In this document: positions 29,052 to 61,595 of the stretch, one piece after another
Layout: every line of letters begins with the position of its first letter
How positions within the stretch are numbered: the stretch's first letter is position 1
Source: Mermis nigrescens
Taxonomy: Eukaryota; Nematoda; Enoplea; Mermithida; Mermithidae
Length of the DNA stretch: 64,000 nucleotides
Direction: 5' to 3'
NCBI GenBank assembly: GCA_036768485.1
Contig: JAVLUZ010000154.1
Location: 46,189,458 to 46,253,457, forward strand
Notes under the pieces: model-generated
What the model was told of the DNA's origin: nothing
Seen by the model: the letters and a program-made list of their open reading frames with translations, nothing else
Database searches by the model: none
Made by a program: the position numbers and the translations under genes

Positions 29052-29676
29052 CCCCTCCACAATTAGCGTTTTTCTGCAAGCTGACGCGAATTTTATGATA
29101 ATTATTTGGCGAAAGTCGTCGCTTCTGAACGGCGCGCTTTTTTGTATTTCAATTTTTTGTTTTTGTTTTACCAATGTGTATGCTTCTTGCCGATTTCGTC
29201 AATATTGGAGCGTACTGTAAGTTTGGCTGGGAAATAGCGCATTGTATCCATTGTGCCGTACTTATCAGTGGACCGAGATACTAATTTCGCGCGGAATTCA
29301 AAAATAATACGAAGTCTTCAAGTTGATGTCACCGAAAAATGTTCAGATTTAAAAAATAGACCTGTATAAAACAGATCGGTGGATAGACAATAGGGATCGA
29401 CCGGAGGTCCATTTTTTTCCCTCCGGGCCGGAGCCGGAGCTCCGGCCATCGTCACCTCCGGCTCCGGCCGGAGCCGGAGCCGGAGGCCGGAGGTGAACTT
29501 AGAATTTTCAGTGAACTAGAATTTTAAATATAATTCATATGATGTACAGTATATAGGTTTGTATAAATATATTGCTCATGAATAAGTAAAAGATCTGTAG
29601 AAGTGAATGTTTATTATCTAACCATGCATTTATATGTACTAAACTATTGCGACTATATTAATTATTTTTCAATTAA

Positions 29677-29771
29677 TTGTCATCAGCGATTTCTTCATCT
29701 TCCATTTCCATATCAGACGAAGCGCTGTCACTGTCCGATTTGTAAGGCTCAAAATATATGATATAATATTT
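29677..29771 (-). pseudogene. Acidic C-terminal coding relic inside the hAT-like element
   Basis: The minus strand encodes YFEPYKSDSDSASSDMEMED followed by EEIADDN and a stop. This is a clean acidic tail with coding character. The upstream part is interrupted by the nested element at 29810. It is probably the end of the element's own protein, but the family cannot be proved from so little. Confidence 0.45.
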
Positions 29772-29809
29772 CACCAATGGTGCATTCACAATGCCACATT
29801 AGTGTTCAC

Positions 29810-31013: not shown

Positions 31014-31243
31014 GTGTTCACATTTACAGCTTCACTTATTAAACCTGTGTTTGTACAAATTCACAAAATAGGCAATCTGAGTGCTAAGCTTCAAAAGAAA
31101 GAAGAGCGTTAAAGCATTGAATGATTCGGTTTAAAAAACCTCCGGCCTTCCGGCCCTCTTTTTGTACCTCCGCCGCCGGAGGCCGGAGGACCAAAAATGG
31201 AGCGGAGCCGGAGCCGGAGCTCCGGTCGATCCCTAATAGACAA

Positions 31244-36495: not shown

Positions 36496-36614
36496 CATAC
36501 GACTTTTCTAGCTCAGTATTGCATTGTGTTTAGTCTGACTTTTTTAAATGTAGACAATTTAGTAGTCTCTTAATAGTAATGGCTGGCAGTCTAGACTGCA
36601 ACGCTGTAGGATAG

Positions 36615-36674
36615 CCTATGTTATAACATAGGCGATGACGTAAAAATCTGCACCCTGACGTCATCCTAGGGTGC
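36615..36674. other. Two palindromes near the left edge of the virus-like cluster
   Basis: CCTATGTTATAACATAGG (36615-36632) is a perfect 18-bp palindrome. GCACCCT(GACGTCATCCT)AGGGTGC (36650-36674) is a hairpin whose loop contains TGACGTCA, the cAMP response element consensus. They may mark a terminus or control site of the cluster. Confidence 0.4.
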
Positions 36675-36830
36675 AACGTTAAAGTATAAATAAAATTCAG
36701 GACGGCTAGGGGTGCGTTAGGATGGTTCCCACCGCGCCGCCTGTTATAGCATGGTCCATCTTGCAGTGTTGTTCCTCAGGTTGCATGGTCGGTCAGTTGG
36801 TGTGCCAAAAAATACTAAAATGGCATAAAA

Positions 36831-36983
36831 CAGGCACGTGGCTGGCCGTCCTACTTGACCACCATTGATTTGGGAGGATTATGCCCAAAAAGACCAAAAA
36901 TAGCACAAAATAACGTTTTAAAAGTCCGATTTTTCTGAATTTTTGGGGGGTCAGGACCCCATTCCCCCAGATCTACGTGCCTG
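36831..36983. mobile_element. hAT-like MITE, family D
   Basis: It begins CAGGCACGTGGCTGGCC and ends AGATCTACGTGCCTG. GCATAAAA precedes it and CATAAAAA follows. Confidence 0.75.
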
Positions 36984-37241
36984 CATAAAAATTATGTATC
37001 TGGTAAGGATGTACTTTTCGCCCTATTTTATCTAGAAATTTTGCTTGCTGAGATGCCCCCCGTGCATGTCTTGTATGTATTATTTACTGTTCGAAGAAAG
37101 CATATACACAACAAGTCACGAATAAATAAATTGTACATATTAAATTATTAGTCCGTTCGTTATTCAAGCGTCTGATTTTTATCGAATGTTTAAGACATAA
37201 AATAAATCGTGTAACCCGTGAAGAAGATGTTTTAATTTATG

Positions 37242-37249
37242 TATAGATA
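37242..37249 (+). promoter_or_regulatory. TATA-like box (TATAGATA) before the second TBP-like copy
   Basis: It lies 41 bp before the ATG at 37283, the same spacing as the TATA boxes of neighbouring cluster genes. It differs from them by one base. Confidence 0.4.
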
Positions 37250-37282
37250 TTGTTTCAAAACCGAAAAATAGTTGTTTTGAAA

Positions 37283-37620
37283 ATGATAATTTGTAATTTA
37301 ATAGCGTCTCTTGATTCTCAGTGTCCTCTGAATCTTCAAGAAGCAGCCAAAAAATTTCCAGAAATGGTTAAATATAAGCCGGTAAAAGGAAATTTCCCTG
37401 GTCTCAGCTTGAAAATCCTAAATCCAAAAGCTACAATGATACTTTTTCGAAATGGTAAATTTATATGTACAGGGACTAAGTCGGAAGAGGAGGCTAAACA
37501 GGCCTTGAGCGAAATCTTGGCTCTTTGCCATCTCGATTCGGATCTATTGAAAAAATTCGTATAAATAATTACGTAGCTACTGGAAACGCTGGATATACCG
37601 TCAGTAGTAGTTATACCTGG
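37283..37620 (+). pseudogene. Second TBP-like gene, first repeat only, then broken
   Basis: From ATG 37283 to TAA 37564 it encodes 93 residues resembling TBP repeat 1: MIICNLIASLDS, then NFPGLSLKI, then ATMILFRNGKFICTGTKS. It is close to the intact copy at 38952, with both repeat 1 intercalating Phe positions (FPGL and LFRNGK) kept. After the stop, another frame resumes with INNYVATGNAGYT, the start of repeat 2, and then loses similarity. It is therefore a truncated, frameshifted paralogue. A single-repeat protein could still be made, but a working two-repeat saddle could not. Confidence 0.85.
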
Positions 37621-37640
37621 TACCCTAGCGGCAACGCTAT

Positions 37641-37699
37641 AGGATAGGCAATGGTTAAGGATAGGCAATGGTTAAGGATAGACAATGGTTAAGGATAGG
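37641..37699 (+). repeat. 17-bp tandem repeat, about 3.5 units
   Basis: The unit AGGATAGGCAATGGTTA begins at 37641, 37658 and 37675, with one G-to-A change in the third unit and a partial fourth. It directly follows the broken TBP-like copy. Confidence 0.85.
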
Positions 37700-37835
37700 A
37701 CATAGTTGAGGAGTGGAAGGGGTCAAAATTGGCACAGTGCCAGCTCAGGCATAAGATTTAAACTAGGATTAAACCTAAACTAAGTGTAAACTAATTGTGA
37801 GTGTAAACTAAGTTAATTGACGTTCACTTTTTCAG

Positions 37836-37885
37836 GCTGCTGCCGGACTTTACACCGAAGCCGACTTTACACCAGAGCTCCCCAG
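37836..37885 (+). other. Candidate small exon, low confidence
   Basis: A strong acceptor (CACTTTTTCAG) and strong donor (CCCCAG|GTAAGA) bracket 50 nt that are GC-richer than the surroundings. One open frame reads AAAGLYTEADFTPELP. I cannot connect it to a gene. It could be a downstream exon of the broken TBP-like locus. Confidence 0.3.
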
Positions 37886-37970
37886 GTAAGACTGTTCCAC
37901 TGTTGGCGGCCTTGTCGAGGCGGGACAGCTTAAGGCGCCATGTGAGTGGGGCGCCGACCAACGCCGGCGT

Positions 37971-38279
37971 TTAATTTTTATATAAAATTGTGTGTGTTAT
38001 ATGTTCGTCAATAGCTCTTTCTACAAAATCCTCAAAGTATTTTTTCGCCTCAATGCTAAAATTACGCCACAAATTGGCTAGTGCGTAAAAGTTTCGTTGA
38101 AAGAGCCATAGTTTTAGATGGCGGCAAAAAGTGTAAAAAGGATTATTTTCAGTCATTGATTGAATGTAGTCGGGGGCGAGCAATGACCAAAAATATGTAC
38201 CTACAGAAAACTCTGGCACATGATCAACTCGAATCAAGTGCATAAGAATGTGTCTATAATATCGTTCACCGGGTTCCAT
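37971..38279 (-). CDS. Unknown 102-residue protein of the virus-like cluster
   Basis: Not recognised. The frame opens MEPGERYYRHILMHLIRVD and ends HTILYKN. It is rich in aromatic residues (FWSLL, FCRHLKLWLF) with no signal peptide and no clear membrane segment. The start is chosen because TATAAATA (38310-38317 on +) lies 31 bp upstream, the same arrangement as in neighbouring genes. It points away from the TBP gene and ends 350 bp downstream of the broken TBP-like copy. Confidence 0.6.
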   Translation of the reverse strand: MEPGERYYRHILMHLIRVDHVPEFSVGTYFWSLLAPDYIQSMTENNPFYTFCRHLKLWLFQRNFYALANLWRNFSIEAKKYFEDFVERAIDEHITHTILYKN

Positions 38280-38309
38280 TTTTAAAATTAAAAAAAATAC
38301 AAATATTAT

Positions 38310-38317
38310 TATTTATA
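38310..38317 (-). promoter_or_regulatory. TATAAATA box of the 102-residue gene
   Basis: Exact TATAAATA on the minus strand, 31 bp before the ATG at 38279. No palindromic motif is adjacent. Confidence 0.6.
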
Positions 38318-38354
38318 GACGATGTCGCAAATATATCACTCCTGCAAATTTGGT

Positions 38355-38370
38355 GGCCCTTAAAAGGGCC
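38355..38370. terminator. Hairpin GGCCCTTAAAAGGGCC in the 102-aa / 125-aa intergenic gap
   Basis: A perfect 6-bp stem lies 48 bp downstream of the 125-residue gene's stop and upstream of the 102-residue gene's TATA box. It could be an end-of-transcript signal. That is an inference from position only. Confidence 0.35.
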
Positions 38371-38417
38371 ATTGGGATTTAGGGTACAATAAAAAAATCG
38401 CCGCCGCCAATCGCCGT

Positions 38418-38795
38418 CTAGGCCGCCGGATGAACCGTCACCACGTCAAAATGGTCGGCCCATTCGGCCAAAACCACGCGCATGGTGAAGCAATTCGAAT
38501 AATGGCGTTGGCTCCAGCCGATCGGATGGCTGAATTCATTGTCTAACACCCAGCGCAGCGAACCGTCCGGTTGTCGTTCGTGCGAAACCGTTCCATGGTC
38601 CAGCGTTAGCTGAAAATAGGCGATGAGGTCTGGCCGGCTAAGCGTAAAGTAGGTGCAATGTTGGGGGTCCGTTTGCGCCAGCTCTTCGTAGACGCGCCGC
38701 TCCACGTGCTTTATAACGTGCCCAAAATAGCACGCACGCTTGAAAACCACCTCCTTGTCCAGTTGAAAGCTAGAATATTTCCTCCAAAAATTCAT
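38418..38795 (-). CDS. Unknown 125-residue protein of the virus-like cluster
   Basis: Not recognised. It begins MNFWRKYSSFQLDKEVVFKR, includes YFTLSRPDLIAYFQLTLDHG, and ends DVVTVHPAA. It is soluble-looking and markedly GC-richer than its flanks. It is divergent from the TBP gene at 38952. The 156-bp space between them contains four copies of the 15-bp cluster motif and a TATA-like TTTATTTAAAT 39 bp before this ATG. The two genes probably share a bidirectional promoter. Confidence 0.7.
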   Translation of the reverse strand: MNFWRKYSSFQLDKEVVFKRACYFGHVIKHVERRVYEELAQTDPQHCTYFTLSRPDLIAYFQLTLDHGTVSHERQPDGSLRWVLDNEFSHPIGWSQRHYSNCFTMRVVLAEWADHFDVVTVHPAA

Positions 38796-38833
38796 GTTTG
38801 AGACGGAAATACGAAAAAATAGGGCTGTCCCCC

Positions 38834-38845
38834 ATTTAAATAAAA
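38834..38845 (-). promoter_or_regulatory. TATA-like element of the 125-residue gene
   Basis: TTTTATTTAAAT on the minus strand abuts the palindrome at 38847 and lies 39 bp before the ATG, mirroring the TBP-side layout. Confidence 0.5.
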
Positions 38846-38846
38846 C

Positions 38847-38907
38847 GAAGGACCGGGAAGTGACTTCCCGGTCCTTCGAAGGACCGGGGAGTGAAGGACC
38901 GGGAAGT
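38847..38907. promoter_or_regulatory. Four copies of the 15-bp cluster motif, two forming a 31-bp palindrome
   Basis: GAAGGACCGGGAAGT occurs at 38847-38861 (+), inverted at 38863-38877, then directly repeated at 38878-38892 (one change) and 38893-38907. The first pair is a perfect 31-bp palindrome around a central G. The array lies between two divergent TATA elements. The same motif controls the polymerase gene (49747-49825), so it is probably an operator or activator site of this cluster. Confidence 0.85.
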
Positions 38908-38914
38908 GGGTTAG

Positions 38915-38922
38915 TATAAAAG
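38915..38922 (+). promoter_or_regulatory. TATAAAAG box of the TBP-like gene
   Basis: TATAAAAG begins 37 bp before the ATG. With the usual 25-30 bp spacing to the transcript start, the leader would be only a few bases long. Confidence 0.75.
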
Positions 38923-38951
38923 CGAATGTTTAAGTAAAATTTTTCATTATC

Positions 38952-39479
38952 ATGGAAATTTGCAATCTAATTGCTACCGCTGTTTGCGACCGCTCTCTAG
39001 ACCTCAACCTTATTGCTACATTGTGCGCTGAAAACATTAAATATCGCCCTGGCAAATTTCCCGGCTTAAGCGTTAAAATAAAAGAACCAAAAGCGACAAT
39101 TTTAATTTTCCGATCCGGAAAAATTGTGTGCACTGGCACAAAATCGAACGATGACGCGCGGCAAGCTTTTGCGAAAATCACCGAAACGCTACAAGAAAAT
39201 TATCCTCAAATAAAACTGAAAAATTTTCGTGTTCATAATTATGTAGGATCTAATCGCGTTGATCACCGCGTGAATTTATCGAAAGTTTATGAAAAATATC
39301 GTCCAAAATGTATTTACGAACCCGAACTTTTCCCGGGTTTAAAATTTTCATGGAATCGCGTTACGGTTATTATTTTTTCAACTGGAAAATTTTTCATCAC
39401 TGGATCGAAAATATTGTCCGATTTGTACCGCGCAAATATAATTGTTTGTTCAATGTTGAATACTTGTAGAATTGATTAA
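38952..39479 (+). CDS. TATA-binding protein homologue (two-repeat core, 175 residues)
   Basis: TBP binds the TATA box minor groove as a two-repeat saddle and nucleates the transcription initiation complex. Repeat 1 (residues 5-80) has NLIAT, KFPGLSVKIKEPKAT and LIFRSGKIVCTGTKS. Repeat 2 (92-170) has VHNYVGS, YEPELFPGL and IIFSTGKFFITGSK. All four DNA-kinking Phe positions are kept (F36, F53, F127, F142), as is the EPELFPG surface that contacts TFIIB. It is core-only, lacking the variable N-terminal tail of animal TBP, and has no intron. Its position among virus-like genes and beside the palindromic motif suggests it serves the cluster rather than replacing the host TBP. It is intact, unlike the polymerase. 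Confidence 0.95.
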   Translation: MEICNLIATAVCDRSLDLNLIATLCAENIKYRPGKFPGLSVKIKEPKATILIFRSGKIVCTGTKSNDDARQAFAKITETLQENYPQIKLKNFRVHNYVGSNRVDHRVNLSKVYEKYRPKCIYEPELFPGLKFSWNRVTVIIFSTGKFFITGSKILSDLYRANIIVCSMLNTCRID

Positions 39480-39732
39480 ATAACTTTGTTGTGCAAGTAA
39501 AAAAATGCTTCGCGAAACACGCGATGAATTTTCATATTAAGATAATGATTACATAATCTCAGTGAATATCTGATATCCATTATCTCTTTAATATTTATTC
39601 TTATGACTATTTATGTATTTTATTTAATGCTTATAACAAATAATATAATCAAAGAATACTAATGCAGATTTAAAGCTAAAAATTAATCAGAAAAATTCCC
39701 CTCCGGGGAGCATTTATTTTTTGTTTTTTTAA
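39480..39732. other. Spacer after TBP-like gene
   Basis: AT-rich spacer with a TTCGCGAAACACGCGA imperfect hairpin at about 39513, and otherwise nothing recognised. Confidence 0.5.
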
Positions 39733-39903
39733 TCAATCAAGGACCGTAATTAAACACACAAATGCGGCTGCTATTCCTATAAACACAATGCCATTGAATG
39801 CCAAAGTAGCGAAACGCGGCAAATTCAGAATAATTGATATTTTTAAGCAACGAATCAAAAACCAAACAAAAATTGCGACATATGCGAAAAGCCTAAATTG
39901 TAA
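39733..39903 (-). CDS. Possible small membrane protein, no ATG (exon or remnant)
   Basis: The minus-strand frame ending at TGA 39733 encodes AYVAIFVWFLIRCLKISI, then a short loop (LNLPRFA), then a second hydrophobic run TLAFNGIVFIGIAAAFVCLI. This gives two membrane segments. No ATG occurs in frame after the upstream TAG. An acceptor-like CAATTTAG precedes GCTTTTCGC, so it may be a 3' exon spliced from the F-box locus, or a remnant. Confidence 0.4.
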   Translation of the reverse strand, partial: LQFRLFAYVAIFVWFLIRCLKISIILNLPRFATLAFNGIVFIGIAAAFVCLITVLD

Positions 39904-39906
39904 GAG

Positions 39907-41037
39907 CTAAAGTGAACTGATTAGCGAAGTGTTGCTAAAGTTTTCAATAATTTTGCGGAAAAGCACGCGACATGCATCGATATTTGTACAATACTCAAAA
40001 TCGATATATACTTCCTTTAAACGTGGCATGGCACGCAAGATATGCGTTATGGCGCCTGGGTAGTTACCATAAAGGTTAAAGTTCAGTAGGGTCAACCGTT
40101 CGGCGTTAAAAAACGGTACGGTATCAGCCAGATGGGCGATGCTGCCATTGAAAGTGAGATCCTTGATGGGGAAATTTTCGGTCGCATACAGGCCGGCCAC
40201 ATACAATGGCGCGGTCTTGGAGCCAAACGCTTTTGGCTGGGGCGTCACGGTTGAGAAAGCTGCGTAGGATCAGAGGAAATCCTATATGGTTGACAGAGGC
40301 AGCTAAAACATAAACGATGGAAAACATTCAATTTTTCCGGCAATATCTAAAATAGTTATTTTATTTATCGAGTCGAAAAACAGATTTTTCCATTTATTTT
40401 TACCGTTTAATGCGAAATAATTGAAACCATTGCATTTAATTGCCAGAAAACGATATAAACTTCTAGATTTTAAAAATTTCATTTGTTTGCAGCTTAGGAC
40501 AATTCGACATTCAGATTTTATATCTTTAATTAAATGTATAATAAATGATAGACATATGTCAATATTGTTTGTCGATAAAAAGTTCAAAGAAATTAATTCT
40601 AGACGTGTGCCCGCTAAAAGTCGAATATTGTTGTTCAGTTTAACTAGTTTTAGGAATATTTTCAAAGGATTCAATCTGACGACTATATCGGAAAATTTAT
40701 CGTCTAAAAGAAGCCATTTTAACACTAAAGTATCAATTACATATTTATTTTTGAATAAAGGGGAACAGTTTTGTATTGTTAAACATTTATCGCTAGCGCC
40801 TTTTCTCAAAAAAGCATCGATTATATCAATATTGCATTCTAATTTCAAATGTCTTGGGCTAAATGCTCTTAAGAGATTACACTGCACTTGGCCTGAAATT
40901 CGTAAAGAAATATCTGAAACGCAACATTTGAACAAATCTACAATTGTTCTAAACTTCCGACAAACTTTTCGCACATTTAATCGCGTTTCAAGATCCAAAA
41001 ATTTGAAAATTTCTACAAAAAGCTCAACAGGAAACAT
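39907..41037 (-). pseudogene. F-box protein gene, frame broken after residue 244
   Basis: F-box proteins recruit targets to SCF ubiquitin ligases through Skp1. From ATG 41037 the protein opens MFPVELFVEIFKFLDLETRL, followed by NVRKVCRKFRTIVD, a clear F-box. A leucine/isoleucine-rich repeat-like body follows, ending at TAG 40303-40305. Similar-looking sequence continues in other frames: VYVLAASVNHIGFPLILRS near 40320-40250, then LTLLNFNLYGNYPG and LKEVYIDFEYC up to the stop at 39907. Two frame changes near TTTT (about 40318) and CCCC (about 40245) would explain this. Introns could also explain it, but the candidate sites do not close the phase. TATAAATA lies 30 bp before the ATG. The antisense 212-residue frame is a shadow. 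Confidence 0.75.
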
Positions 41038-41066
41038 TTTTAGTATAAAAAACGTATAATATGCAT

Positions 41067-41074
41067 TATTTATA
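41067..41074 (-). promoter_or_regulatory. TATAAATA box of the F-box gene
   Basis: Exact TATAAATA on the minus strand, 30 bp before ATG 41037. It overlaps a possible splice donor (ACG|GTAAGT at about 41084-41089). Confidence 0.6.
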
Positions 41075-41086
41075 AACAACTTACCG

Positions 41087-41284
41087 TCAATTCTCAAGAT
41101 CGAAGGGCATAATTCGTTCATATATTTCGAGAAGCCGTTTTTCGTTGAGCTCAAAATTGTCCGACGGGGTAAAATTGACGGCTCGAAGGCGTTCGCTGGG
41201 GAGGGCGCTCATCTGCGCAGGGGGTGCAAGGCGGGCGGTGCATTTTGGCTGAGCGTGGTGGGTTGGTTCTTCAATATGTAACAT
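41087..41284 (-). CDS. Unknown 65-residue frame upstream of the F-box gene
   Basis: Not recognised. It begins MLHIEEPTHHAQPK and ends RIMPFDLEN. It is GC-rich compared with its neighbours and has a TATAAT-like element (41319-41324) about 35 bp before the ATG. The sequence ATTGACG|GTAAGT at its end could instead make this a 5' exon of the F-box gene in another frame. Confidence 0.4.
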   Translation of the reverse strand: MLHIEEPTHHAQPKCTARLAPPAQMSALPSERLRAVNFTPSDNFELNEKRLLEIYERIMPFDLEN

Positions 41285-41353
41285 AATATCGTTGCAAGGG
41301 GGCCAGTGAAGCGTACGAATTATACATTGCCATCGAGAGCATACTCATTCTAC

Positions 41354-41422
41354 CTTACTCCGCTCAAACGGGTCCATAAAATATAATATGTGCGCAATCA
41401 TTTCGTTAGGTATAGCTTCCAT
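41354..41422 (-). CDS. Second F-box N-terminal fragment
   Basis: ATG 41422 opens MEAIPNEMIAHILYFMDPFE followed by RSK, a recognisable F-box start (PNE-x-hydrophobic, ILxFMDPxER). It then meets AAG|GTAGAA, a possible donor, and a stop two codons later. Either it is the first exon of a second F-box gene or a truncated copy. Confidence 0.55.
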
Positions 41423-41478
41423 CGTCGTAGTTGATTCAAATTGACCCGTTTGGCGCACAGAAAAAAACTTACCTCAAG

Positions 41479-41601
41479 ACTTACCTTGCAGCTGGAAGCG
41501 TAAAATTATTAAACATTTGAAAAATTATACTTACTTTACACCTGAAATGAAGCAATTTAAAATATATATGACTACTTACCTCCTGAACTACACCTGAAAA
41601 C
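41479..41601 (-). other. Chain of abutting acceptor/donor sites (micro-exons or recursive splice sites)
   Basis: On the minus strand three units follow each other. TTTTCAG precedes a 14-nt segment (41580-41593) and GTAAGT. TTTCAG precedes a 7-nt segment (41535-41541) and GTAAGT. CTTCCAG precedes a 7-nt segment (41485-41491) and GTAAGT. The first two begin AG|GTGTA, so each 3' splice site is immediately followed by a donor-like GT, as in recursive splicing. Confidence 0.4.
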
Positions 41602-41618
41602 GATTAAAAAAACATGCA

Positions 41619-41840
41619 ATGAGAAAAAAGAAAAAGCAGCCACTTACGGGGCTGAATTTTGATTATTTTTTTGGCCGATTATTTGCCGAGTTTCTTTTTT
41701 CTCGGCTTTTATATTTTTTAATCGGCACCATCAATATTCGAACGCGCTTAAAAAAAGCCCTAAGGCAAAAAACAAAAAACGATAAACGAAAAAAACGAAT
41801 TAATGCTAAAGCCCGGAGGCAAAATACGAACAAAAATTAA
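41619..41840 (+). CDS. Unknown 73-residue hydrophobic-then-basic protein
   Basis: Not recognised. After MRKKKKQPLTG comes a hydrophobic segment (FFGRLFAEFLFSRLLYFLIG, about residues 18-37). A strongly basic tail follows (RLKKALRQKTKNDKRKKR and onward). Its TAA (41838-41840) overlaps the polymerase stop on the other strand (41837-41839). This tight tail-to-tail packing supports it as a real gene. A basic DNA-packaging or membrane-anchored role is conceivable but not shown. Confidence 0.55.
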   Translation: MRKKKKQPLTGLNFDYFFGRLFAEFLFSRLLYFLIGTINIRTRLKKALRQKTKNDKRKKRINAKARRQNTNKN

Positions 41841-42270
41841 TAACCATATGGTAATGTAACGAAATTTGGGCAAATTACGCGTTTGTCGTACACCATTCAA
41901 TAATCTTTTTTACAAATTTTTGTGATAACGTTTCGTTCATGATCGCGCAAGATTCGTTTCTCAATTATAGTTTTCACGAAACGATTGTCGTTCAAACAAT
42001 ACTCAAAAATCATTTGTCGCAAAATCTCGAAATTAACAGATTTTTGTTTTCGTAATTAAGGCTGATGCCTCGTACCTTGTTGACCTCGTCAACAATCTGG
42101 CCGGTCGCGTTGGCTACCCTGTAGCCGTAGTTTTTCGGACCGCCAGCGGCAAACTCGTCAATGTACGCTCCATCTCCGTATGTTTTTCAGCTCGTTCGTC
42201 ATCTCTCCTAGGAAGCAGCCTGTAGGCACGTGGTAGGTATCGCCGGGTGTCGTCAAATAAATTATAGAGT
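41837..42270 (-). pseudogene. polB: polB exon 11: second half of motif C and C-terminus
   Basis: The acceptor is TTATTTCAG. The exon begins with the DS of motif C, followed by IIYLTTPGDTY and, in a second frame, GGPKNYGYRV. A third frame carries the basic C-terminal part. Two frame changes (AAAAA at 42183-42187; about 42030) and TGA at 41897-41899 interrupt it. The final residues LPYGY precede TAA 41837-41839. Confidence 0.85.
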
Positions 42271-42420
42271 CTGAAATAATAATAAAGCATAAAATGGTGG
42301 AATGCAATTATTTGACGTCACATAAACACAATAATCATGCTAAAAGTTTTTGACAGGGTTCCCCCTCTGACGTCACACAATAATGATAATAAGCATGCTA
42401 TAACTATTTTTAAGACTGAC
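42271..42420. promoter_or_regulatory. polB intron 10 with two CRE-like TGACGTCA sites
   Basis: TGACGTCA occurs at 42313-42320 and 42368-42375. Each is followed by ACA(C/T)AA and an AATNATGC-type block, so the intron holds an imperfect direct repeat of about 55 bp. Confidence 0.5.
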
Positions 42421-42692
42421 CCGTGTCCATGTACAGGACCCGTTCGTCAAGCTTCTCGAGGTACGAGTAAAGCTTCAAGCGAGCTTGCGCCGTGACGAAG
42501 CTCGCGATCACTGGGTTGGTGTTCTTCAAGGGCTGGAGGAATTCGTCCTCCAGCTTGTACCGTGACGCAGGCGAGCGACTCGCCATAAAATCGGATGCAT
42601 CCGATCTCGTTTCTGTCGTTGAAGACGCAGCCATTGAACGCTTCTGGGGTCTTGAAATATTCCGTGTTTGAAAGGTCGTTTTGTTGACCAAA
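42421..42692 (-). pseudogene. polB: polB exon 10: between motif B and motif C
   Basis: Acceptor CGTTTTCAG, donor ACGG|GTCAGT. It opens FGQQNDLSNTEYF and ends YLEKLDERVLYMDT plus one base, in a second frame after a change near 42565. The donor falls inside the catalytic DTDS motif. Confidence 0.85.
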
Positions 42693-42920
42693 CTGAAAAC
42701 GAAAAGTAATTAAAACGAATTTAAAAAATGAAATCACACATTAATAATTAAATAGGATGATGAAACGAATTAAAAAATGAGAGTACGCGCTAATAATTAA
42801 ATAAAAATAGATAAATTGAAAAAACCCAGTAGCATACAATAATAAATGAATAATAATATAAATCGAGTTAAAAATGAGAGTATGCATTAAGAATTAAATA
42901 AAAAACAGATAAATTCTCAC

Positions 42921-43200
42921 TTTGCCCCAGAAGCTGTTCAGCATCAGCTTGGCAAGGGCACGCATGCCAGGGTTTTGTCTCGATTTTGGCCGGATCGAGT
43001 TTGATGCCTTCGACGGTATCATAGTTTTGGACGTATTGGAGCTTCTGCTCGTCTGTGGTAGCCGTGGTCGGGTAGCCGTCAGCTTGCTGCTTCAGGCGAA
43101 GGAACGTGTTGATGTAGAGCGCAAAAAGGCCTCCACGTTTCGTCGCTGGATCATACTGATCCGTCTCGGGATAATGCCACACTTCGTGCAGCTCGACAAT
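42921..43200 (-). pseudogene. polB: polB exon 9: motif B (KLMLNSFWG)
   Basis: Acceptor TTGATTAAG, donor CAAA|GTGAGA. It begins IVELHEVWHYPETDQYD and includes the GGLFALYINTFLRLKQ helix. After a frame change at the AAAACCC run (about 42968-42976) it reads ALAKLMLNSFWGK, the nucleotide-binding motif B. Confidence 0.88.
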
Positions 43201-43425
43201 CTTAATCAATAAAAAACATTCACAGCGTAATAATTAAAATTTATAAAAAGGGGTAAATTGATATAATTAATTTCCGCATACACAGCTTCAATACATTGCA
43301 CAGACACAATAGGTTATATGGGCACACAATTAAATTGTAAATAAATTTTTGCATATTATATTAAATATAAATTTATAAAAAAATCACATTTAATTTATAT
43401 GCACAAATTTTTATAAAATATTCAC

Positions 43426-43878
43426 CTTGTAGCCCATATCCATTGCTTTGTAGAGCTCAATGGTGACCCAGCACCCCTCGAGTTGCCTTTGTTTGTCAGT
43501 GTGATCGCAATGGTCGATCTGTTCGGTTGCACAGGTGCGACACAACGGGAACAACAGTTTGCCGTTGGCGCGCAATGGAAGCACGGGGTGGAACAGGTGC
43601 TTGGGCGGCAAGACGGTGCACTTGACGATGCCCGTGTACGGTCGACTGGCCAAATCGGCAAAGTTTTCGGTAATGATGTCAGGGTGGCCTAATGGGAAAA
43701 CGCCCATTTTGCACACCCACGGGTAAAGCGAGCAAACGTCGACATAGTCGATTCGTTCGCCATCTTGGCACTTGTGGTAAAGCCTGATGGCGTTGGTTTG
43801 GCCGCCGTAAAACGCGTCACGGGGTCCGATTGGCTCGCGAATGACCGTTTGGTCGAAAAAGGCCTTCATCTCGGCACA
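43426..43878 (-). CDS. polB: polB exon 8: motif A (DxxSLYP)
   Basis: An uninterrupted 151-codon exon with acceptor AAATTTTAG and donor CAAG|GTGAAT. It contains GGQTNAIRLYHKC and YVDVCSLYPWVCK, the latter carrying a catalytic Asp of motif A. The entry phase clashes by one base with exon 7. The plus-strand frames here are shadows. Confidence 0.9.
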
Positions 43879-43916
43879 CTAAAATTTAAAAAAGCACCAT
43901 GTACACAACAGCAAAG

Positions 43917-44015
43917 GTTTATTTCATTTATTTATTTATTTATTTATTTAATTATTTCATTTATTTGATATTTATTTAATATTTACTTTTAATATCTATA
44001 TATCTATTTATATTT

Positions 44016-44068
<53 letters not shown>

Positions 44069-44300
44069 TTAATTATTTTATTTTATTTATTTATTTAATT
44101 ATTTATTTTTTATATATCTATTTATTTATTTATTTTATATTTATTTATTCATTTATTTAATTATTTACCATTTTATTTTATTTATTTATTTATATTTATT
44201 TAATATTAATTTACTATCTATTTAATTTTTATTTCAATATCTATATATTTATTATATTTAATTATTTTATTTATTTATTTATTTAATATTTGTGTAAAAA
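43917..44300. repeat. (ATTT)n array in a polB intron
   Basis: Nearly 400 bp of TTTA/ATTT tetranucleotide repeats with minor interruptions, filling most of the intron between exons 8 and 7. Confidence 0.95.
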
Positions 44301-44385
44301 ATAAAGCTCGCGATAAATACACAAAAAATATGGGTCTGACCCACCCCCACCTCTAGACTAAAATGCGTTTAAAAAATATACCCAC

Positions 44386-44558
44386 CTGTCTTGAGCTCGC
44401 GTCGTAAGTCGCACTCCCACTTCTCAACAACAGTGTAGCCGAGGGATCGTAGGTGAGCCGTTCGGGCAAGCATTCGCTGGTATGATTCGTCAGCTGTTCG
44501 GTTCTGGTCTAGCGTGACCTCGGTTCGCTTCGGGATACATTGAGGACACCCGTGCCAC
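44386..44558 (-). pseudogene. polB: polB exon 7 (HGCPQC segment)
   Basis: Acceptor TTTTTCCAG, donor ACAG|GTGGGT. It encodes HGCPQCIPKRTEV and then LRSLGYTVVEKWECDLR, a region preceding motif A in these polymerases. It is open throughout but leaves phase 1 where exon 8 expects phase 0. Confidence 0.85.
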
Positions 44559-44737
44559 CTGGAAAAAATACAACTAGAAATTAAAACATGCAAATTGAAT
44601 GCGTGAATAGCTGAAATAAAAATATTATGAAATATTAAATAAAAATGTTAAATAATGTATAAAAATATTATTAAAGATTTAAAAATACTACATATTAAAT
44701 AAAAAAATATTAAATATTTCATGTAAATTTGACTCAC

Positions 44738-45145
44738 CAGCAACCGTGAAATTCGTAGACCGTCTTCTGGTACAAGCCGTCAACATGGTATGAGCCAATT
44801 TTAATTTCGCCGCCATTGAGTTTATGCCTGATCGGTATTCCGTCGGAGACAGTAAGCCATTTGAGCCATTTCAGCCCAACGATCGACTGCTTCTCCTTGT
44901 TGCGGTAGCCGCCTTGGGGTATGATGCCGATGGCATTGTCGGTGAGGAAGTTTTGCCTGAACACATGGTTGCAGGCCGCGGCGATAGTCAGGCTCGTTAG
45001 GAAAGGGTCGACGCCAGTTTCGGCTAGGAAGATGTCACGGAACTTGAGGGCACATTTAGCGAGTATGTGAACGTCGCTTTCGCAGTACGTCAACAGCTCG
45101 TGCCGAAAATCAAATTCCTTGCCAGACTCTTGCTCGTGGGCGTAC
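44738..45145 (-). CDS. polB: polB exon 6: exonuclease motif III
   Basis: Acceptor AATTTTCAG, donor GCTG|GTGAGT. It contains ELLTYCESDVHILAKC, the Exo III YCxSD motif. Its entry phase matches exon 5 and its exit phase matches exon 7. Confidence 0.9.
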
Positions 45146-45279
45146 CTGAAAATTCGAAAACTAATAAATTTTATGTAATTCGAAAAATAAACCTGAAATC
45201 GCTAATGTTATACAGCAACAAAGTTGATCCAACCTCCCCCTCTGGCCAAAAACGGATTTTTTAAGAATAAGTGACTCAC

Positions 45280-45517
45280 CACTGCAAGAAATCGGCTCGG
45301 GCTTCTTCCTTCATGCCATCAGGGCTGTAATACTTGGCGTCGGGGATCGAACCCTTGTAGTTGGAATTGGCGCGTGTGTTGAACAGGTGGGGGAAGTGCC
45401 CTTTTTTCAGCTCCTGTTCATTGAACGTTTTCGGAAACGCGCTGAGCGCCATCGGTAAGAAATTGAGAGTGTCGATGACGCGAACGCCTGCAGCTTCCAA
45501 CATTATGATTTCGAGCC
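45280..45517 (-). CDS. polB: polB exon 5
   Basis: Acceptor ATTTTTAG, donor AGTG|GTGAGT, with phases closing on both sides. It includes LEAAGVRVIDTLNFLPMALS and ELKKGHFPHLFNT, conserved between Exo II and Exo III in this family. Confidence 0.9.
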
Positions 45518-45552
45518 CTAAAAATCAATAAATCAGATATACGCACACATGT

Positions 45553-45555
45553 CAT

Positions 45556-45587
<32 letters not shown>

Positions 45588-45645
45588 TTTATTTATTTAT
45601 TTATTTATTCATTTATTTTTTAAATATTTATTTATTTAATTATTT

Positions 45646-45681
<36 letters not shown>

Positions 45682-45880
45682 TTATATTTAATTAGTATTT
45701 ATTTATTAGTTTATTTATTTATTTATTTGTTTATTTATTTATTTATTTTTAAAATATTTATCTATTTTATTTTATATTTATTTAATTTTACATTCATTTA
45801 TTTATTTACATTATTTATTTATTTATTTTAATATTTATTTAATTATTCATTTATTTATTATTTAATTATTTATACACTCT
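45553..45880. repeat. (ATTT)n array in a polB intron
   Basis: About 330 bp of TTTA tetranucleotides with interruptions, in the intron between exons 5 and 4. Confidence 0.95.
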
Positions 45881-46063
45881 TCATTAATTGAAGGTTAATT
45901 AATCACAATAGAATTTTGTATCAAAAATCACATGATAAGTTTAATAAAATTTTTTAATACAGCAAAAATAGATGAGATAATGGTAAATAAACGAATTTTA
46001 AAAATGTTAGGCTAACTAGCTCATGCTCTAAATAATTATCATGTCGTGCAATAAAAATATTAC

Positions 46064-46446
46064 CTTTTGTGACCACTTTTGGCACAATGGTCTTTTGCTC
46101 GTGGAGGTACTCGAGCAAAAATTGGACGTCAAAGCTGCAGGCGTTGTGGGCGAGGGCCGTTGCACCTCTGTTCTCTTCGGAGAACAACCATTCCCCAAAT
46201 TCGTGGAGAATGTTGTCTCCGAGGAACTTGTGGCGGTTCGCGCCGCCACACTGGACACAAGACCCAAGTTCATTGTTGTGGCAATGGTCGCAAAGACAAT
46301 AGGCTACGCAGCAATTTGGAACGTGTTTAAGGAGCGGGGCCGTTGTCCGTTTCGCACAGTTCCTGGTCTTGCCGCGTTTCGAAGTCGAAAAAGATGAAGA
46401 CGAGCTTCCTCTTCCTCTTCCTATCGTCTGCCGTCGTGTTAATCGC
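46064..46446 (-). pseudogene. polB: polB exon 4: exonuclease motifs I and II
   Basis: Acceptor TTGATTTTAG, donor AAAG|GTAATA. Frame 1 carries KRKLVFIFFDFETRQ (Exo I). Frame 2, after a change at the CCCC run near 46338, carries HVPNCCVAYCLCDHC and ALAHNACSFDVQFLLEYL (Exo II). The exit phase matches exon 5. Confidence 0.88.
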
Positions 46447-46606
46447 CTAAAATCAAGAAATATTAAGAAAAAACTCGTAATTAAATATCGATTAAGCATA
46501 TGTACCCCAACCAATCTCCATGCATCGAATGATAAGAATATGCACCCCTCCCCCAATATCCATGCATCAAATGAATAAAAAAACACAAAACCCCAAATAT
46601 ACTCAC

Positions 46607-46834
46607 CCTTATCTAACACTGATGAGTGCGGGCATCATCTTTGATGCCGCAAGTTTTGCAATACATCTCGTAGCATCGATGCTCTTTCGTATGTGACGAT
46701 TCAAACGAGGCCGGAGCATGTCAGGCAACACCTAAGATGACTGCAAGCCAAGGCGATTCGTTGAATCTTGCCATTAGAATTGGACAGATTGACCAGTCTT
46801 ATGGTTCTTGAAACAGGTGCGGCTCAGCATCCGC
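46607..46834 (-). pseudogene. polB: polB exon 3: zinc-finger remainder, decayed
   Basis: Acceptor TATTAAACAG, donor AAGG|GTGAGT. Pieces in different frames are RTCFKNHKTGQS, CCLTCSGLV and HTKEHRCYEMYCKTCG followed by a Cys/His end. A TAA near 46774 and further frame changes interrupt them. The Cys/His spacing suits the zinc-binding block before the exonuclease domain. Confidence 0.7.
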
Positions 46835-46861
46835 CTGTTTAATACAATGTATTTATCATAC

Positions 46862-46869
46862 ATGCCTAT

Positions 46870-46900
<31 letters not shown>

Positions 46901-47545
46901 TTTCTTTATTATTTATTAATTTATTATTTTAATTATTTATTCATTTATTTTAATTAACTATTTATCTATTATTTATTATGTATTTATTTATTTATTATTT
47001 ATTTATTTACTATTTAATATTAATTTAATTATATACTTACTACATTAAATTATTTTTTTTAAATTTTATTATTATAAATTTATTTTATTTTATTTTTATT
47101 CATTTATTTTAATATTTATTTAATTATTATCTATCTATTTATTTATTTATTTATTTAATTATTATTTATTAATTTGATTATTTAATGTTTAATATTTATT
47201 TATTATTTTATTTAGTTTGATTATTTAATATTTAATATCTATTTATTATTTTATTATGTTGATTATTTATTAATTATTAGTTTTATTATTTAATATTTAT
47301 TTTTTATTTTAATTATTATTGATTATATTTAATCATTTATTTATTTATTTAATTATTATTATTATTTATTTCTACATTTAAATATTTAATTATTTTTATG
47401 TATTTAATATTTATTTATTTTATTTATTATTTTAATATTTATTTATTTATGTATTTATTTATTTATTTATTTATTATGTTTTCATTTATTAATTCAATTA
47501 TTTAATATTTATTTTTTTATTTAATTATTTATTTATTTATGCATA
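46862..47545. repeat. (ATTT)n-rich array in a polB intron
   Basis: Almost 700 bp of TTTA-type low complexity with irregular TTTAAT interruptions, in the intron between exons 3 and 2. This is the longest of the three arrays. Confidence 0.95.
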
Positions 47546-47606
47546 ATATGGGCATAGGATAATATAATATTCACGGATCAAATAATATTCTTGAATTAAG
47601 ACTCAC

Positions 47607-48108
47607 CTGTTACACTGGTTACAATAGAAATCGCCTCTCTCCATGGTGCACGGCTCCTTGGCGTTGCACGCATGGCACCCGCCGCGGCTGCAATGGTGGT
47701 CCTCCTCGTTGCTGTAGCCTTTATCGCACTTATTGCAATAGTAACTACGACCTACGAACGCCGGCATGCGCGTGATGACATCGTAGTGTCGATCGTGTAG
47801 GTAGAGGTGCAGCATCTGTTCTGCGGGCGGGCCTTTGTAAATGAGGGCGTTAAAGTGCTCCTTTGAATAGATTTTGAGCTGGTAATTGGGCGTGAGGAGC
47901 TGCTGGATGTGCTCGGCTTCCTCGACGCCACACTCGCCGGCGAAATTCTTCAAGCCGGCTTCGCGCATCAGCTGTTGGGCAAGCCGTTCCTGCATAGTCT
48001 GCGCTTTGAATCGCCCAAACGAATGCTTTTTATTCGAGAGTGCTTCTCGATACGGGCACGGGCGACGACGACAGCCCTCGCGAGACACAAATTGTCGTCG
48101 TTGATTAT
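47607..48108 (-). pseudogene. polB: polB exon 2: NDDNLCLARA motif and zinc finger
   Basis: Acceptor TTTTGAATAG, donor ACAG|GTGAGT. It opens IINDDNLCLARAVVVARARI. A one-base change at AAA (about 48003-48008) follows. The exon continues through YQLKIYSKEHFNALIY and HYDVITRMPAF to a Cys-rich finger (YYCNKCDKGYSNEEDHHC). Confidence 0.88.
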
Positions 48109-48830
48109 CTATTCAAAATTTGTATTCTAATTAATATTGAATGAATTTAAAATATTGATAACTTTAGACACAAACTATTTTTATAATTTTTCATTATTTT
48201 TTCTAATAAAAACTATTAACAAAAGCACGTATACTTTACTAAATATTTTTATATTCTCTCATGATTACTGGAATATACGATTAACTCAATAAAATGCACA
48301 TTACATATTTTTTCTAAAGCAGAATAAAAATTTACGCCAAAATACTTGAAGTTTATGCTGCGAAAATATATAAGCTCCTGAATTTTGGATTATATAATCT
48401 AAGAATAACAATAGTTTTTCTCATCACTTAATACAAAACTAGTTTTGATTGATACACACTATCCTTTTTGAAATATATTAAGACAAAAAATTTATTAGAA
48501 CTGACATTCATTCTTATCTAACGTCTAAGGTACGACCAAAAGATTTAAATAAAAAATTATGCAGAAACATCAAAATATGGGCATCTTATGCAAATAGGTA
48601 TATTTCTCATCAACTTAATATTGCAATTTACGCATGCCTAATGTTTTTCTTATCACTATAAAATAATTAGACCGATAAAAAATTAATTAGATTGATAAAA
48701 AATGCAAAGCACATCGTCTTTTAATTATTTTTTAGAAATTAACGTACCATTTTTTATAAAGGTTAAATTTTTATTCTCAAAAATAGAGAACATCCCCTTT
48801 TTTCAAAAATTATTAGTCATCGTCACTCAC
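48109..48830. other. polB intron 1
   Basis: AT-rich intron sequence without ATTT arrays or recognisable repeats, bounded by GTGAGT and GAATAG. Confidence 0.6.
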
Positions 48831-49684
48831 CTGTATGAAGTATCCTCCGTGGCCGCCAATGTTTCATGAAGCACAGGTTCCAGTTGACAACTCTTGAGTT
48901 ACTGTGGCTGCTATTTGGACCGCCGCCTCTAGGGGACTCGACAATAACTATCTTCATCATCATCTCCTCATGGAAGGCGAACGCTCGTTTTGACTGTTGA
49001 ACTTTCTTGATGGCGTTCAAAATGCGGTTGGCGTTCATCGCCTCCACCATGGTAAATGGCACAAGGATGCGGGTGTCCAGGCTGGTGTGTTGGATCTCTA
49101 CTACAACACGGTCGCTGGCGTTGCGATTCGTAAGGAGTGTCGTGAGAATGTTATTTATAATCGCTGGGATCAATGGGCTCGTGATCAATCTCTGCAATAT
49201 GGTTGAAGCGGATGTTATAGCCAATCGCTTTGGCATTGAACCTTCGGACCCTTAGATGCGATTCTTCGCCAACAACATAAAATTCGCCAATGGGGCAATT
49301 GCCGCCACCAATCTGGCACTCGTCAAAATCGCTGCTAAAAATAGTTTCCCAAAATTCAGGCGATCCAAAGTCGCGGGACGCAAGCACGGGTAAGTCGTAG
49401 CCCCAAAAAGCGTGTTGAAAATAAAGTGTCATTATGCAGCTATCGTTTCGCCACAATTCGCTATCAATCGGGAGCTGCAGCGAGTCGACGTTTATTTCGG
49501 GCGCCAACAAGACCTGCGATCCATCTTCAATGGTCATTGCCCACAATTCAGGCGTTATCAGTTGCTCGCGTTGAGCAGCATCATAGCCAATAATATGGTT
49601 CCACAATACGGTGATGAGCCGCTGGTTGGCGACCCAAATTCGAGAATTGATAATGCACTTGAGCGTATCAAATGAAAGTGCCAT
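48831..49684 (-). pseudogene. polB: polB exon 1: N-terminal region
   Basis: ATG 49684 (MALSFDTLKCIINSRIW) is chosen over the upstream GTG because it lies 50 bp below a TATAAATA box. The first frame runs to NAKAIGYNIRFNHIAEIDHE. After a one-base change at CCC (about 49165) a second frame continues with RVVVEIQHTSLDTRILVPF and MMKIVIVESPRGGG. Both stretches are characteristic of the N-terminal region of this polymerase group. Donor ACAG|GTGAGT. Confidence 0.82.
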
Positions 49685-49733
49685 CGTATCACAAAAATTT
49701 TTCACAATGAAGGCGAGACCCTTACGTCGCTCG

Positions 49734-49741
49734 TATTTATA
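49734..49741 (-). promoter_or_regulatory. TATAAATA box of polB
   Basis: Exact TATAAATA on the minus strand, 50 bp before ATG 49684 and 5 bp from the palindrome at 49747. Confidence 0.75.
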
Positions 49742-49746
49742 GACAT

Positions 49747-49825
49747 GAAGGGCCGGGAAGTCACTTCCCGGTCCTTCAATTTATTTGTTTAATGAAAGGA
49801 CCAGTACGTGACTTCCCGGTCCTTC
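49747..49825. promoter_or_regulatory. Two palindromes of the 15-bp cluster motif upstream of polB
   Basis: GAAGGGCCGGGAAGT (49747-49761), a central C, and ACTTCCCGGTCCTTC (49763-49777) form a 31-bp palindrome with one mismatch. A second, with a degraded left arm, ends in an exact ACTTCCCGGTCCTTC at 49811-49825. It is the same motif as at 38847-38907, 11 kb away. Confidence 0.85.
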
Positions 49826-49837
49826 GCCCAACATGCT

Positions 49838-50116
49838 TTAACAATTGGTCTGTACAAGTGATTTACCGCCTAGAATTTCGTGCATTAAATCGCGCTTTGA
49901 CCTGCCTAATGGTTCATACATGTAAAATACATCATCCGAGTCTAAATTTAATTTTTTAGGCGCTTCTCCACCCTTCTGTTCTTTTCTTGGTCTACCTCGT
50001 TTTTTACGCGTTTTTCCTTCACCGCTGATATCAAATTCGAAAGAAGTTTGTTTTTTCTTTGGTCTACCCCGTTTTTTAGTAGTTTGTTGAGCTGTTATTA
50101 CACGAATAGGTTCACG
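49838..50116 (-). CDS. AT-hook protein, C-terminal 92 residues (start lost in the gap)
   Basis: AT-hooks bind the minor groove of AT-rich DNA. The frame has two: KKRGRPKKK and KKRGRPRKE, about 24 residues apart. It then reads LNLDSDDVFYMYEPLGRSKR and ends LVQTNC at TAA 49838-49840. The N-terminal part lies in or beyond the N gap. The stop is only 13 bp from the motif palindrome and 150 bp from the polymerase ATG. Nothing else in the frame is recognised. A transcription or chromatin role in the cluster is an inference from the DNA-binding motifs. Confidence 0.85.
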   Translation of the reverse strand, partial: REPIRVITAQQTTKKRGRPKKKQTSFEFDISGEGKTRKKRGRPRKEQKGGEAPKKLNLDSDDVFYMYEPLGRSKRDLMHEILGGKSLVQTNC

Positions 50117-50117
50117 C

Positions 50118-50217
50118 NNNNNNNNNNNNNNNNNNNNNNNNNNNNNNNNNNNNNNNNNNNNNNNNNNNNNNNNNNNNNNNNNNNNNNNNNNNNNNNNNNN
50201 NNNNNNNNNNNNNNNNN
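50118..50217. other. Assembly gap (100 N)
   Basis: Exactly 100 N, probably a placeholder of unknown true length. It hides the start of the AT-hook gene and probably the right end of the virus-like cluster. Confidence 0.98.
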
Positions 50218-61450: not shown

Positions 61451-61595
61451 CTATTGGTCGCACTCACACGTGGGCGTGGGGGAACAGGGGTGGCTTCGGG
61501 GGTATGCAACCCCTCCATTGAGTCGCAAAATAAGCAAAGTTGAATTCGTAATCCTAATTTTACGATGATCACTATGTAACAAAATTGGGATATGG

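What the first reader, a model, noticed from the sequence alone, without database searches (positions are those of the whole stretch)
36600..50117. Virus-like gene cluster pairing its own TBP homologue with a protein-primed polymerase
Seen: an intact TBP core gene, a second broken TBP-like copy, a family B polymerase with DFET, YCxSD, DxxSLYP, NSFWG and DTDS motifs, F-box genes, an AT-hook protein and small unknown genes within 13 kb. Known: protein-primed polymerases mark Polinton/Maverick-type elements and related DNA viruses, and TBP homologues are rare in viruses. Inference: this is an endogenised DNA virus or large transposon that brings its own promoter-recognition factor. I saw no capsid, integrase or packaging ATPase, which may lie beyond the gap.
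Basis: partly seen in the sequence, partly recalled or inferred. Interest (0 to 1): 0.88.

Follow-up and report, generated by a model that had tools for sequence, protein, structure and literature searches.

The report
Virus-like transposons carrying their own TBP
The window holds two nested virus-like transposons (Mavericks) of a nematode that carry their own version of TBP, the protein that marks where genes start, next to a DNA polymerase; related elements in the same genome often have a TATA box just before their genes, which suggests, but does not prove, that they bring their own start-signal reader.

Summary
The genome (524 Mb) is very probably Mermis nigrescens. Two Maverick/Polinton elements are nested: element W begins at 37606 and has inserted into the TBP gene of an older element F, which is why one TBP is broken and the other intact. 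W carries TBP, PolB, an F-box gene and an AT-hook frame, and ends at an assembly gap that lies at the centre of a palindrome in a relative. No capsid, integrase or ATPase gene was detected in the window. Elsewhere TBP sits in elements with integrase, ATPase, double-jelly-roll capsid, 5'-AG inverted repeats and 6-bp target duplications; 17 of 19 sampled capsid loci without a listed TBP have one at the expected place. Element TBPs, except family C, form a clade apart from host TBP. In families B/D/E they evolve under purifying selection. DNA-wedge and TFIIB-contact residues are kept. A TATA box lies upstream of 23 of 32 examined genes. Best reading: an element-coded TBP steers host Pol II to element promoters. 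Function is inferred, not tested.

The parts
36561..37605 (+). Remnant of the older Maverick element, family F (left end approximate, near 36561-36572)
   Evidence: Query 1-1004 of the DNA search matches 19 other listed places, each ending at window 37603; the left-end sequence resembles the other termini only loosely
37283..37605 (+). TBP1: first TBP repeat and start of the second, then cut off by the insertion
   Evidence: Pfam TBP 69 bits; the family-F copy on C64 runs on through the second repeat in one open frame
37606..37660 (+). Left terminus of element W
   Evidence: Six listed matches start exactly here and two within 4 bases; aligns with termini of families A and D
37971..38279 (-). 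Small gene of W, relative of the 112-122 aa Maverick protein found near the integrase
   Evidence: 27% over 77 aa, E 6e-9 to D_122; TCTATAAATA 38 bases before its ATG
38418..38795 (-). Unassigned 125-aa reading frame inside W
   Evidence: no Pfam hit
38915..38922 (+). TATA box TATAAAAG, 37 bases before the TBP2 ATG
38952..39479 (+). TBP2: intact 175-aa element TBP, single reading frame
   Evidence: Pfam 147.1 bits, two repeats; clade apart from host TBP
40306..41208 (-). F-box gene of W
   Evidence: Pfam F-box-like E 4.1e-8 on 40306-41154; lies in stretches shared with other listed W copies at 82-96%
42413..43233 (-). PolB, C-terminal exon region (NSFWG; YMDTGQS then stop)
43414..43869 (-). 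PolB exon with DVCSLYP
   Evidence: DNA_pol_B_2 51.6 bits; 158 matches reported in the genome, two others at 98%
44737..45201 (-). PolB exon with YCESD
   Evidence: DNA_pol_B_2 33.7 bits
45957..46634 (-). PolB exon region with DFET
   Evidence: no Pfam hit of its own
47606..48112 (-). PolB N-terminal exon region
   Evidence: 39-44% to the PolB N-part in families B and D
48826..49780 (-). PolB N-terminal region, or partly a gene just before it; TATAAATA at 49734-49741 (-)
   Evidence: 32-34% to the family B PolB N-part; relatives of both frames lie just before the polymerase in the family-F copy L057; TATA 57 bases before the first ATG
49841..50116 (-). AT-hook frame of W, cut by the gap
   Evidence: two KRGRP repeats; present in the C289 copy
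50118..50217 (.). Assembly gap, close to the centre of the palindrome in the C289 copy

Best explanation
These are Maverick/Polinton elements of a nematode (probably a mermithid) that carry a TBP gene of a virus-type clade as a recurring part of their gene set. Shown: TBP lies between terminal repeats and target duplications in two examined copies; it recurs beside capsid and replication genes in several families (A, B, C, D, E, F, W; B, D and E are close kin) with different gene orders; in B, D and E it is under purifying selection; it keeps the residues that kink DNA and hold TFIIB; and a TATA box precedes 23 of 32 examined element genes. Inferred: during element activity the TBP binds these TATA boxes, recruits host TFIIB and Pol II, and so switches on element genes. 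It may do so free of host TFIIA/NC2 control, because the basic helix residues thought to serve those contacts are poorly kept. In the window, element W (TBP2 plus PolB) has inserted into the TBP gene of element F.
For: Context: 16 of 20 fetched TBP-centred loci, chosen by me from families A-D, match at least one of integrase, ATPase, MCP, protease, penton-like or PolB-N; the reference proteins come from some of these same loci. 26 of 97 listed MCPs have a listed TBP within 12 kb against about 0.7 expected; 17 of 19 sampled MCP loci without a listed TBP have one, whole or truncated, at the expected place. Termini and TSDs AATAGA and CATGTG. MCP model matches PBCV-1, Sputnik and mavirus capsids. 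Element TBPs other than family C, plus 13 database proteins of unnamed origin, form a clade at 99/94 apart from host TBP. dN/dS 0.11-0.16 in 14 of 15 B/D/E pairs. Wedge Phe 23, 23, 23 and 21 of 23 (Tyr in 2); both TFIIB Glu 23 of 23. TATAAATA upstream of 17 of 32 genes against shuffle maximum 3 and random-window maximum 5.
Against: No expression, binding or mobility data. TATA boxes also suit host TBP; host promoters were not available as a control. The family A TBP gene itself has no such box, nor do the C ATPase, protease and penton-like genes, and TATAAAAG alone (3 of 32) is not above the shuffle maximum of 5. In the window 3 of 12 frames have a box against 1 of 10 elsewhere, which is weak by itself. 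The one family A pair compared gives dN/dS about 0.72 from few changes, so selection is not shown there. B, D and E have Leu or Met for the second-repeat Asn, and 14 of 23 rows lack the first-repeat Thr, so DNA affinity may differ. By phmmer the closest PDB chains to TBP2 are archaeal, slightly ahead of eukaryotic ones. No PolB core was found in the B/D stretches held, and no capsid, integrase or ATPase gene in the window, so no single element was shown complete. Family C TBP falls nearer cellular eukaryotic TBPs (89/83, 97/92), though one origin is not rejected (AU p 0.32).
Confidence: 0.7

Rival explanations
1. The element TBP is a decoy or repressor: it occupies TATA boxes or host TFIIB and dampens host genes or rival elements.
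For: Helix residues thought to face TFIIA/NC2 are poorly kept, and family A, with giant inverted repeats, keeps little besides TBP and a zinc protein in its centre.
Against: Both TFIIB-contact Glu are kept in 23 of 23 rows, and many element genes carry TATA boxes, which a repressor would also silence.
Confidence: 0.15
2. Passenger gene: a captured TBP carried along without a role.
For: Mavericks can pick up host genes (recalled); some copies have stops or truncations; the one family A pair gives dN/dS about 0.72 from few changes.
Against: dN/dS 0.11-0.16 in 14 of 15 B/D/E pairs, presence at 17 of 19 sampled MCP loci, and retention despite changed gene order between families B/D and C.
Confidence: 0.06
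3. Host TBP paralogues that only happen to sit in repeats, with no tie to the elements.
For: Family C TBP lies near cellular eukaryotic TBPs in the tree.
Against: The host TBP on C73, found as two separate exon matches, is 86% identical to human TBP; whole element TBPs are single frames and 34-43% identical to it. The tree splits them at 99/94. TBP lies between TIRs in the copies examined.
Confidence: 0.02
4. The TBP serves replication or packaging as a DNA-bending protein rather than transcription.
For: TBP is close to PolB in families C, F and W.
Against: TFIIB-contact residues are kept and TATA boxes sit before many genes.
Confidence: 0.07

Closest known systems
Maverick/Polinton elements of animals, including nematode polintons
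   Same: PolB, rve integrase with chromodomain, A32-type ATPase, double-jelly-roll capsid, adenovirus-type protease (weak), 5'-AG termini and 6-bp target duplication
   Different: A recurring TBP gene and TATA boxes before most examined genes; no paper placing TBP in a Maverick appeared in the listings. The main paper on nematode polintons (msad274) was not held and may mention it
Mirusviruses
   Same: DNA viruses with a TBP gene: 59% of mirusvirus genomes against 0% of Nucleocytoviricota in that study (PMC10132985, passages seen)
   Different: Mirusviruses have HK97-fold capsid proteins (passage) and large genomes (431.5 kb in one case) and infect plankton; these are small double-jelly-roll elements of an animal
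Mavirus and endogenous mavirus-like elements
   Same: Small related elements with a promoter motif shared by their genes; mavirus motif TCTA with AT-rich flanks (PMC8547959, passages seen)
   Different: The mavirus motif corresponds to the late promoter of its giant virus, which suggests helper-supplied transcription factors; here the element itself carries a TBP
Cellular eukaryotic TBP
   Same: Two repeats, DNA wedge Phe, TFIIB Glu
   Different: No long N-terminal domain, single reading frame, 34-43% identity to the host TBP for whole copies and 30% for the TBP1 fragment, separate clade except family C

Membership tests
Maverick/Polinton | Protein-primed family B polymerase | tested here: met
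   DNA_pol_B_2 in the window; 158 matches reported in the genome. Protein priming itself was not tested
Maverick/Polinton | Retroviral-type (rve) integrase | tested here: met
   Met in the family B relative: rve 44.3 bits with Chromo domain. Not found in the window
Maverick/Polinton | Double-jelly-roll major capsid protein | tested here: met
   Family B MCP model, mean pLDDT 84.4, Foldseek hits to PBCV-1, Sputnik and mavirus capsid proteins; Pfam itself gave no hit on this MCP. Not found in the window
Maverick/Polinton | FtsK/A32-type packaging ATPase | tested here: met
   Family B relative: Pox_A32 22.8 bits, exactly at the cut-off 22.8. Not found in the window
Maverick/Polinton | Adenovirus-type cysteine protease | tested here: inconclusive
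   Peptidase_C5 20.4 bits, cut-off 21.3
Maverick/Polinton | Penton-type minor capsid protein | tested here: inconclusive
   Named by gene position and recall; Pfam gave only a chance-level hit
Maverick/Polinton | Terminal inverted repeats with 5'-AG and 6-bp target duplication | tested here: met
   C37 copy AATAGA, C667 copy CATGTG. For element W only the left end was seen; its duplication could not be tested
TBP family (PF00352) | TBP repeats over the curated cut-off | tested here: met
   147.1 bits against 22.9, two stretches
TBP family (PF00352) | DNA wedge Phe and TFIIB-contact Glu | tested here: met
   residue roles are recalled
TBP family (PF00352) | Binds TATA DNA and TFIIB | not testable with these tools
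   needs protein

The most novel reading that the evidence does not exclude
A lineage of animal Maverick viruses has its own promoter system: an element TBP of a distinct clade, paired with a common TCTATAAATA-type box before most element genes, lets the element run its own set of genes on host Pol II, free of host TFIID control. Forms with giant inverted repeats that keep the TBP behave like regulatory satellites of full elements.
Probability: 0.45. Interest if true: 0.9.

Novelty: new variant of a known kind. Interest (0 to 1): 0.8.

Why it matters
A small DNA virus-like element that supplies its own core promoter factor would be unusual: in the papers seen here, TBP in viruses was reported for mirusviruses and, sporadically, for putative mirusvirus-derived elements of a green alga (passages), not for Mavericks. 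If the TBP reads the element TATA boxes, Mavericks could decide when their genes run instead of waiting for a helper virus or host control. The many copies with shared TATA boxes make this directly testable, and the nested and palindromic copies give a record of how such elements insert and decay.

Tried and rejected
Host paralogue reading: rejected, except for family C, by trees and by the position of TBP between TIRs. Relatives in the viral contig collection: none confirmed for TBP or MCP. The zinc protein beside TBP as a TFIIB-like ribbon: the model was too poor to use (pLDDT 59.7). Right end of element W: not found; the C289 relative is a palindrome there. TSD of W: left flank GTCAGT against GTCAAC in the F copy on C64, right end unseen, so not shown. 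PADLOC scan of the ATPase gave one weak hit, not pursued. A genome-wide count of GTCTATAAATA did not complete. Contigs around the database TBPs P0001-P0007 could not be reached (metagenome scans capped at 0). No dedicated search for an element RNA polymerase was made.
Full report
What is there. The window is G000:C61:46189458-46253457 of a 523,963,438-base, 860-contig assembly. Size and contig number fit Mermis nigrescens (524,220,005 bases, 867 scaffolds; PMC10989877, passages seen); the name is an inference. The two TBP genes, PolB exons, an F-box gene and an AT-hook frame are present. The one motif not confirmed is DTDS: the frame reads YMDTGQS and then a stop.

Two nested elements. A DNA search with window 36600-42800 (85 matches listed, 40 of 3,703 candidates scored) splits the locus. 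Bases 36600-37603 match 19 other listed places, each match ending at 37603 (family F). Against the first 39 of the 150 listed PolB hits, 8 of these 19 have a PolB within 6 kb, 7 of them on the same strand. From 37606 on the sequence belongs to family W: six listed matches begin exactly there and two within 4 bases. The sequence at 37606 resembles the termini of families A and D. In the F copy on C64 the TBP runs on past the insertion point in one open frame, followed by a 148-aa frame and by the PolB N-terminal region in the same direction. So TBP1 was broken by the insertion of W, and W carries the intact TBP2. The F left end near 36561-36572 is only a loose match.

The gap. In the W relative on C289 the stretch that matches window 49523-50117 is followed by its mirror image; a self-inverted match of 96.9% over 1,244 columns is centred near C289:553619. 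The window's 100-N gap lies close to that centre. On C137, between about 3119489 and 3127025, W segments lie in mirror order with the terminal stretch towards each end. I infer that W exists in palindromic forms that the assembly could not resolve, and that what follows the gap need not belong to W.

TBP in the genome. PF00352 gives 150 scored hits of 2,552 first-look candidates, at 139 places more than 600 bases apart, two of them the host gene's exons. I fetched 20 TBP-centred 10-kb loci chosen from families A-D: 16 of 20 match at least one of integrase, ATPase, MCP, protease, penton-like or PolB-N at E 1e-8; the other 4, all family A, match only a zinc protein and an F-box gene; the one family A integrase match looked at (L019) is a chromodomain tail. 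The reference proteins come from some of these same loci. Identification: rve 44.3 bits with Chromo domain, Pox_A32 exactly at its cut-off, Peptidase_C5 just under its cut-off; the MCP model (pLDDT 84.4) matches PBCV-1, Sputnik and mavirus capsid proteins. The penton label is mine by position. A family D copy on C37 runs 22877-32699 (9,823 bases) with TIRs 88% alike over 449 columns and TSD AATAGA; a family A copy on C667 runs 178117-187496 with giant inverted repeats and TSD CATGTG.

Co-occurrence. The MCP search used a family B protein and scored 97 of 2,614 candidates. 26 of 97 have a listed TBP within 12 kb; about 0.7 would be expected if places were uniform. Of the 71 without a listed TBP, 20 were sampled at even steps; one stretch lay beyond its contig, and 17 of the other 19 have TBP, three of them truncated (L038, L050, L055), and ATPase at the expected place. 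The remaining two have neither there. For PolB, 12 of 150 listed hits have a listed TBP within 15 kb against 1.3 expected; some of these TBPs belong to a neighbouring element (as at C289 and C194), and the other 138 have none listed, since only 150 TBP hits were shown. In families B and D TBP lies between integrase and ATPase on the other strand; in family C it follows the penton-like gene on the same strand. No PolB core was found in the B/D stretches I held.

Origin of the TBP. The host TBP on C73, seen as two exon matches, is canonical (86% to human). Element TBPs of families A, B, D, E, F and W and 13 database proteins of unnamed origin (short contigs) form a clade at 99/94 (also with other row sets). 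Window TBP2 pairs with P0001 (100/96) and F with P0004 (95/90), so the two window TBPs are not recent duplicates of each other. Family C falls near cellular eukaryotic TBPs (89/83 here, 97/92, 96/84), but a single origin is not rejected (AU p 0.32); a clade of element and cellular TBPs without the 13 database proteins is rejected (p 2e-26), which says mostly that those proteins belong with the element TBPs. In PDB the best phmmer matches to TBP2 are archaeal (E 7.6e-35), a little ahead of plant and animal TBPs.

Function. dN/dS among six B/D/E sequences is 0.11-0.16 in 14 of 15 pairs and 0.28 in one very close pair, with dS above 1 in several; B against D gives 0.07 for ATPase, 0.10 for penton-like and 0.07 for MCP; integrase dS was saturated; one close family A pair gives about 0.72 from few changes. 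In 23 rows, near copies included, wedge Phe are kept in 23, 23, 23 and 21 (Tyr in 2), both TFIIB Glu in 23; one helix-2 Lys in 11 and the other in none; second-repeat Asn in 15 and first-repeat Thr in 9 (residue roles recalled). A TATA box TATA[AT]A[AT][AG] lies in the 80 bases before 23 of 32 genes of four representative loci (B 10 of 11, D 8 of 11, C 4 of 8, A 1 of 2); 22 of the 23 are 31-56 bases from the ATG, the B protease box is at 75. Shuffles reach at most 10 and random windows 6; for TATAAATA 17 against 3 and 5; TATAAAAG alone, 3, is within the shuffle range. Genes without a box include the 189-aa gene of B and D, its counterpart in C, the family A TBP, the D integrase and penton-like genes, and the C ATPase, protease and penton-like genes. 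In the window 3 of 12 ATG-started frames of the two elements have one (TBP2, the 122-like gene, the PolB start region) against 1 of 10 elsewhere; several of the 12 are internal exons or chance frames.

Known or new. Seven literature searches listed no paper that puts TBP in a Maverick (only listings were seen, and searches listed part of their matches). Three papers hold both 'TATA-binding protein' and 'polinton': passages of two were seen, the third (PMC7786948) was not opened. Mirusviruses carry TBP (PMC10132985, passages), and TBP is sporadic in elements of putative mirusvirus origin in a green alga (PMC10675990, passages). Mavirus genes share a TCTA motif that corresponds to a promoter of its giant virus (PMC8547959, passages). 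The main nematode polinton paper (msad274) was not held, so it may already mention TBP.

Noticed in passing
G000 C51:3876189, 3884571, 3892956: Three TBP matches with the same score and the same two stops, spaced 8,382 and 8,385 bases apart, as in a tandem array of about 8.4-kb units.
   Followed up: no
L019, L024 (family A): Elements with giant inverted repeats (longest arms 2.9 and 2.65 kb, 98% and 93% alike) whose centre holds little besides TBP and a zinc protein, with F-box genes in the arms.
   Followed up: partly
window 38838-38908 and 49738-49826: Short palindromic repeat built on GGACCGGGAAGTGACTTCCCGGTCC, present twice in W and again in both halves of L056.
   Followed up: no
window 43918-44280, 45523-45813 and further: Long degenerate ATTT arrays between PolB exons.
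   Followed up: no
L025:1568-1888 and relatives: Small Cys-rich (CxxC...CxxC) protein, 66-71% alike across families A, B and D, that accompanies TBP; fold unknown.
   Followed up: partly
window 60001-63000: Negative GC skew of about -0.2, stronger than in the rest of the window.
   Followed up: no
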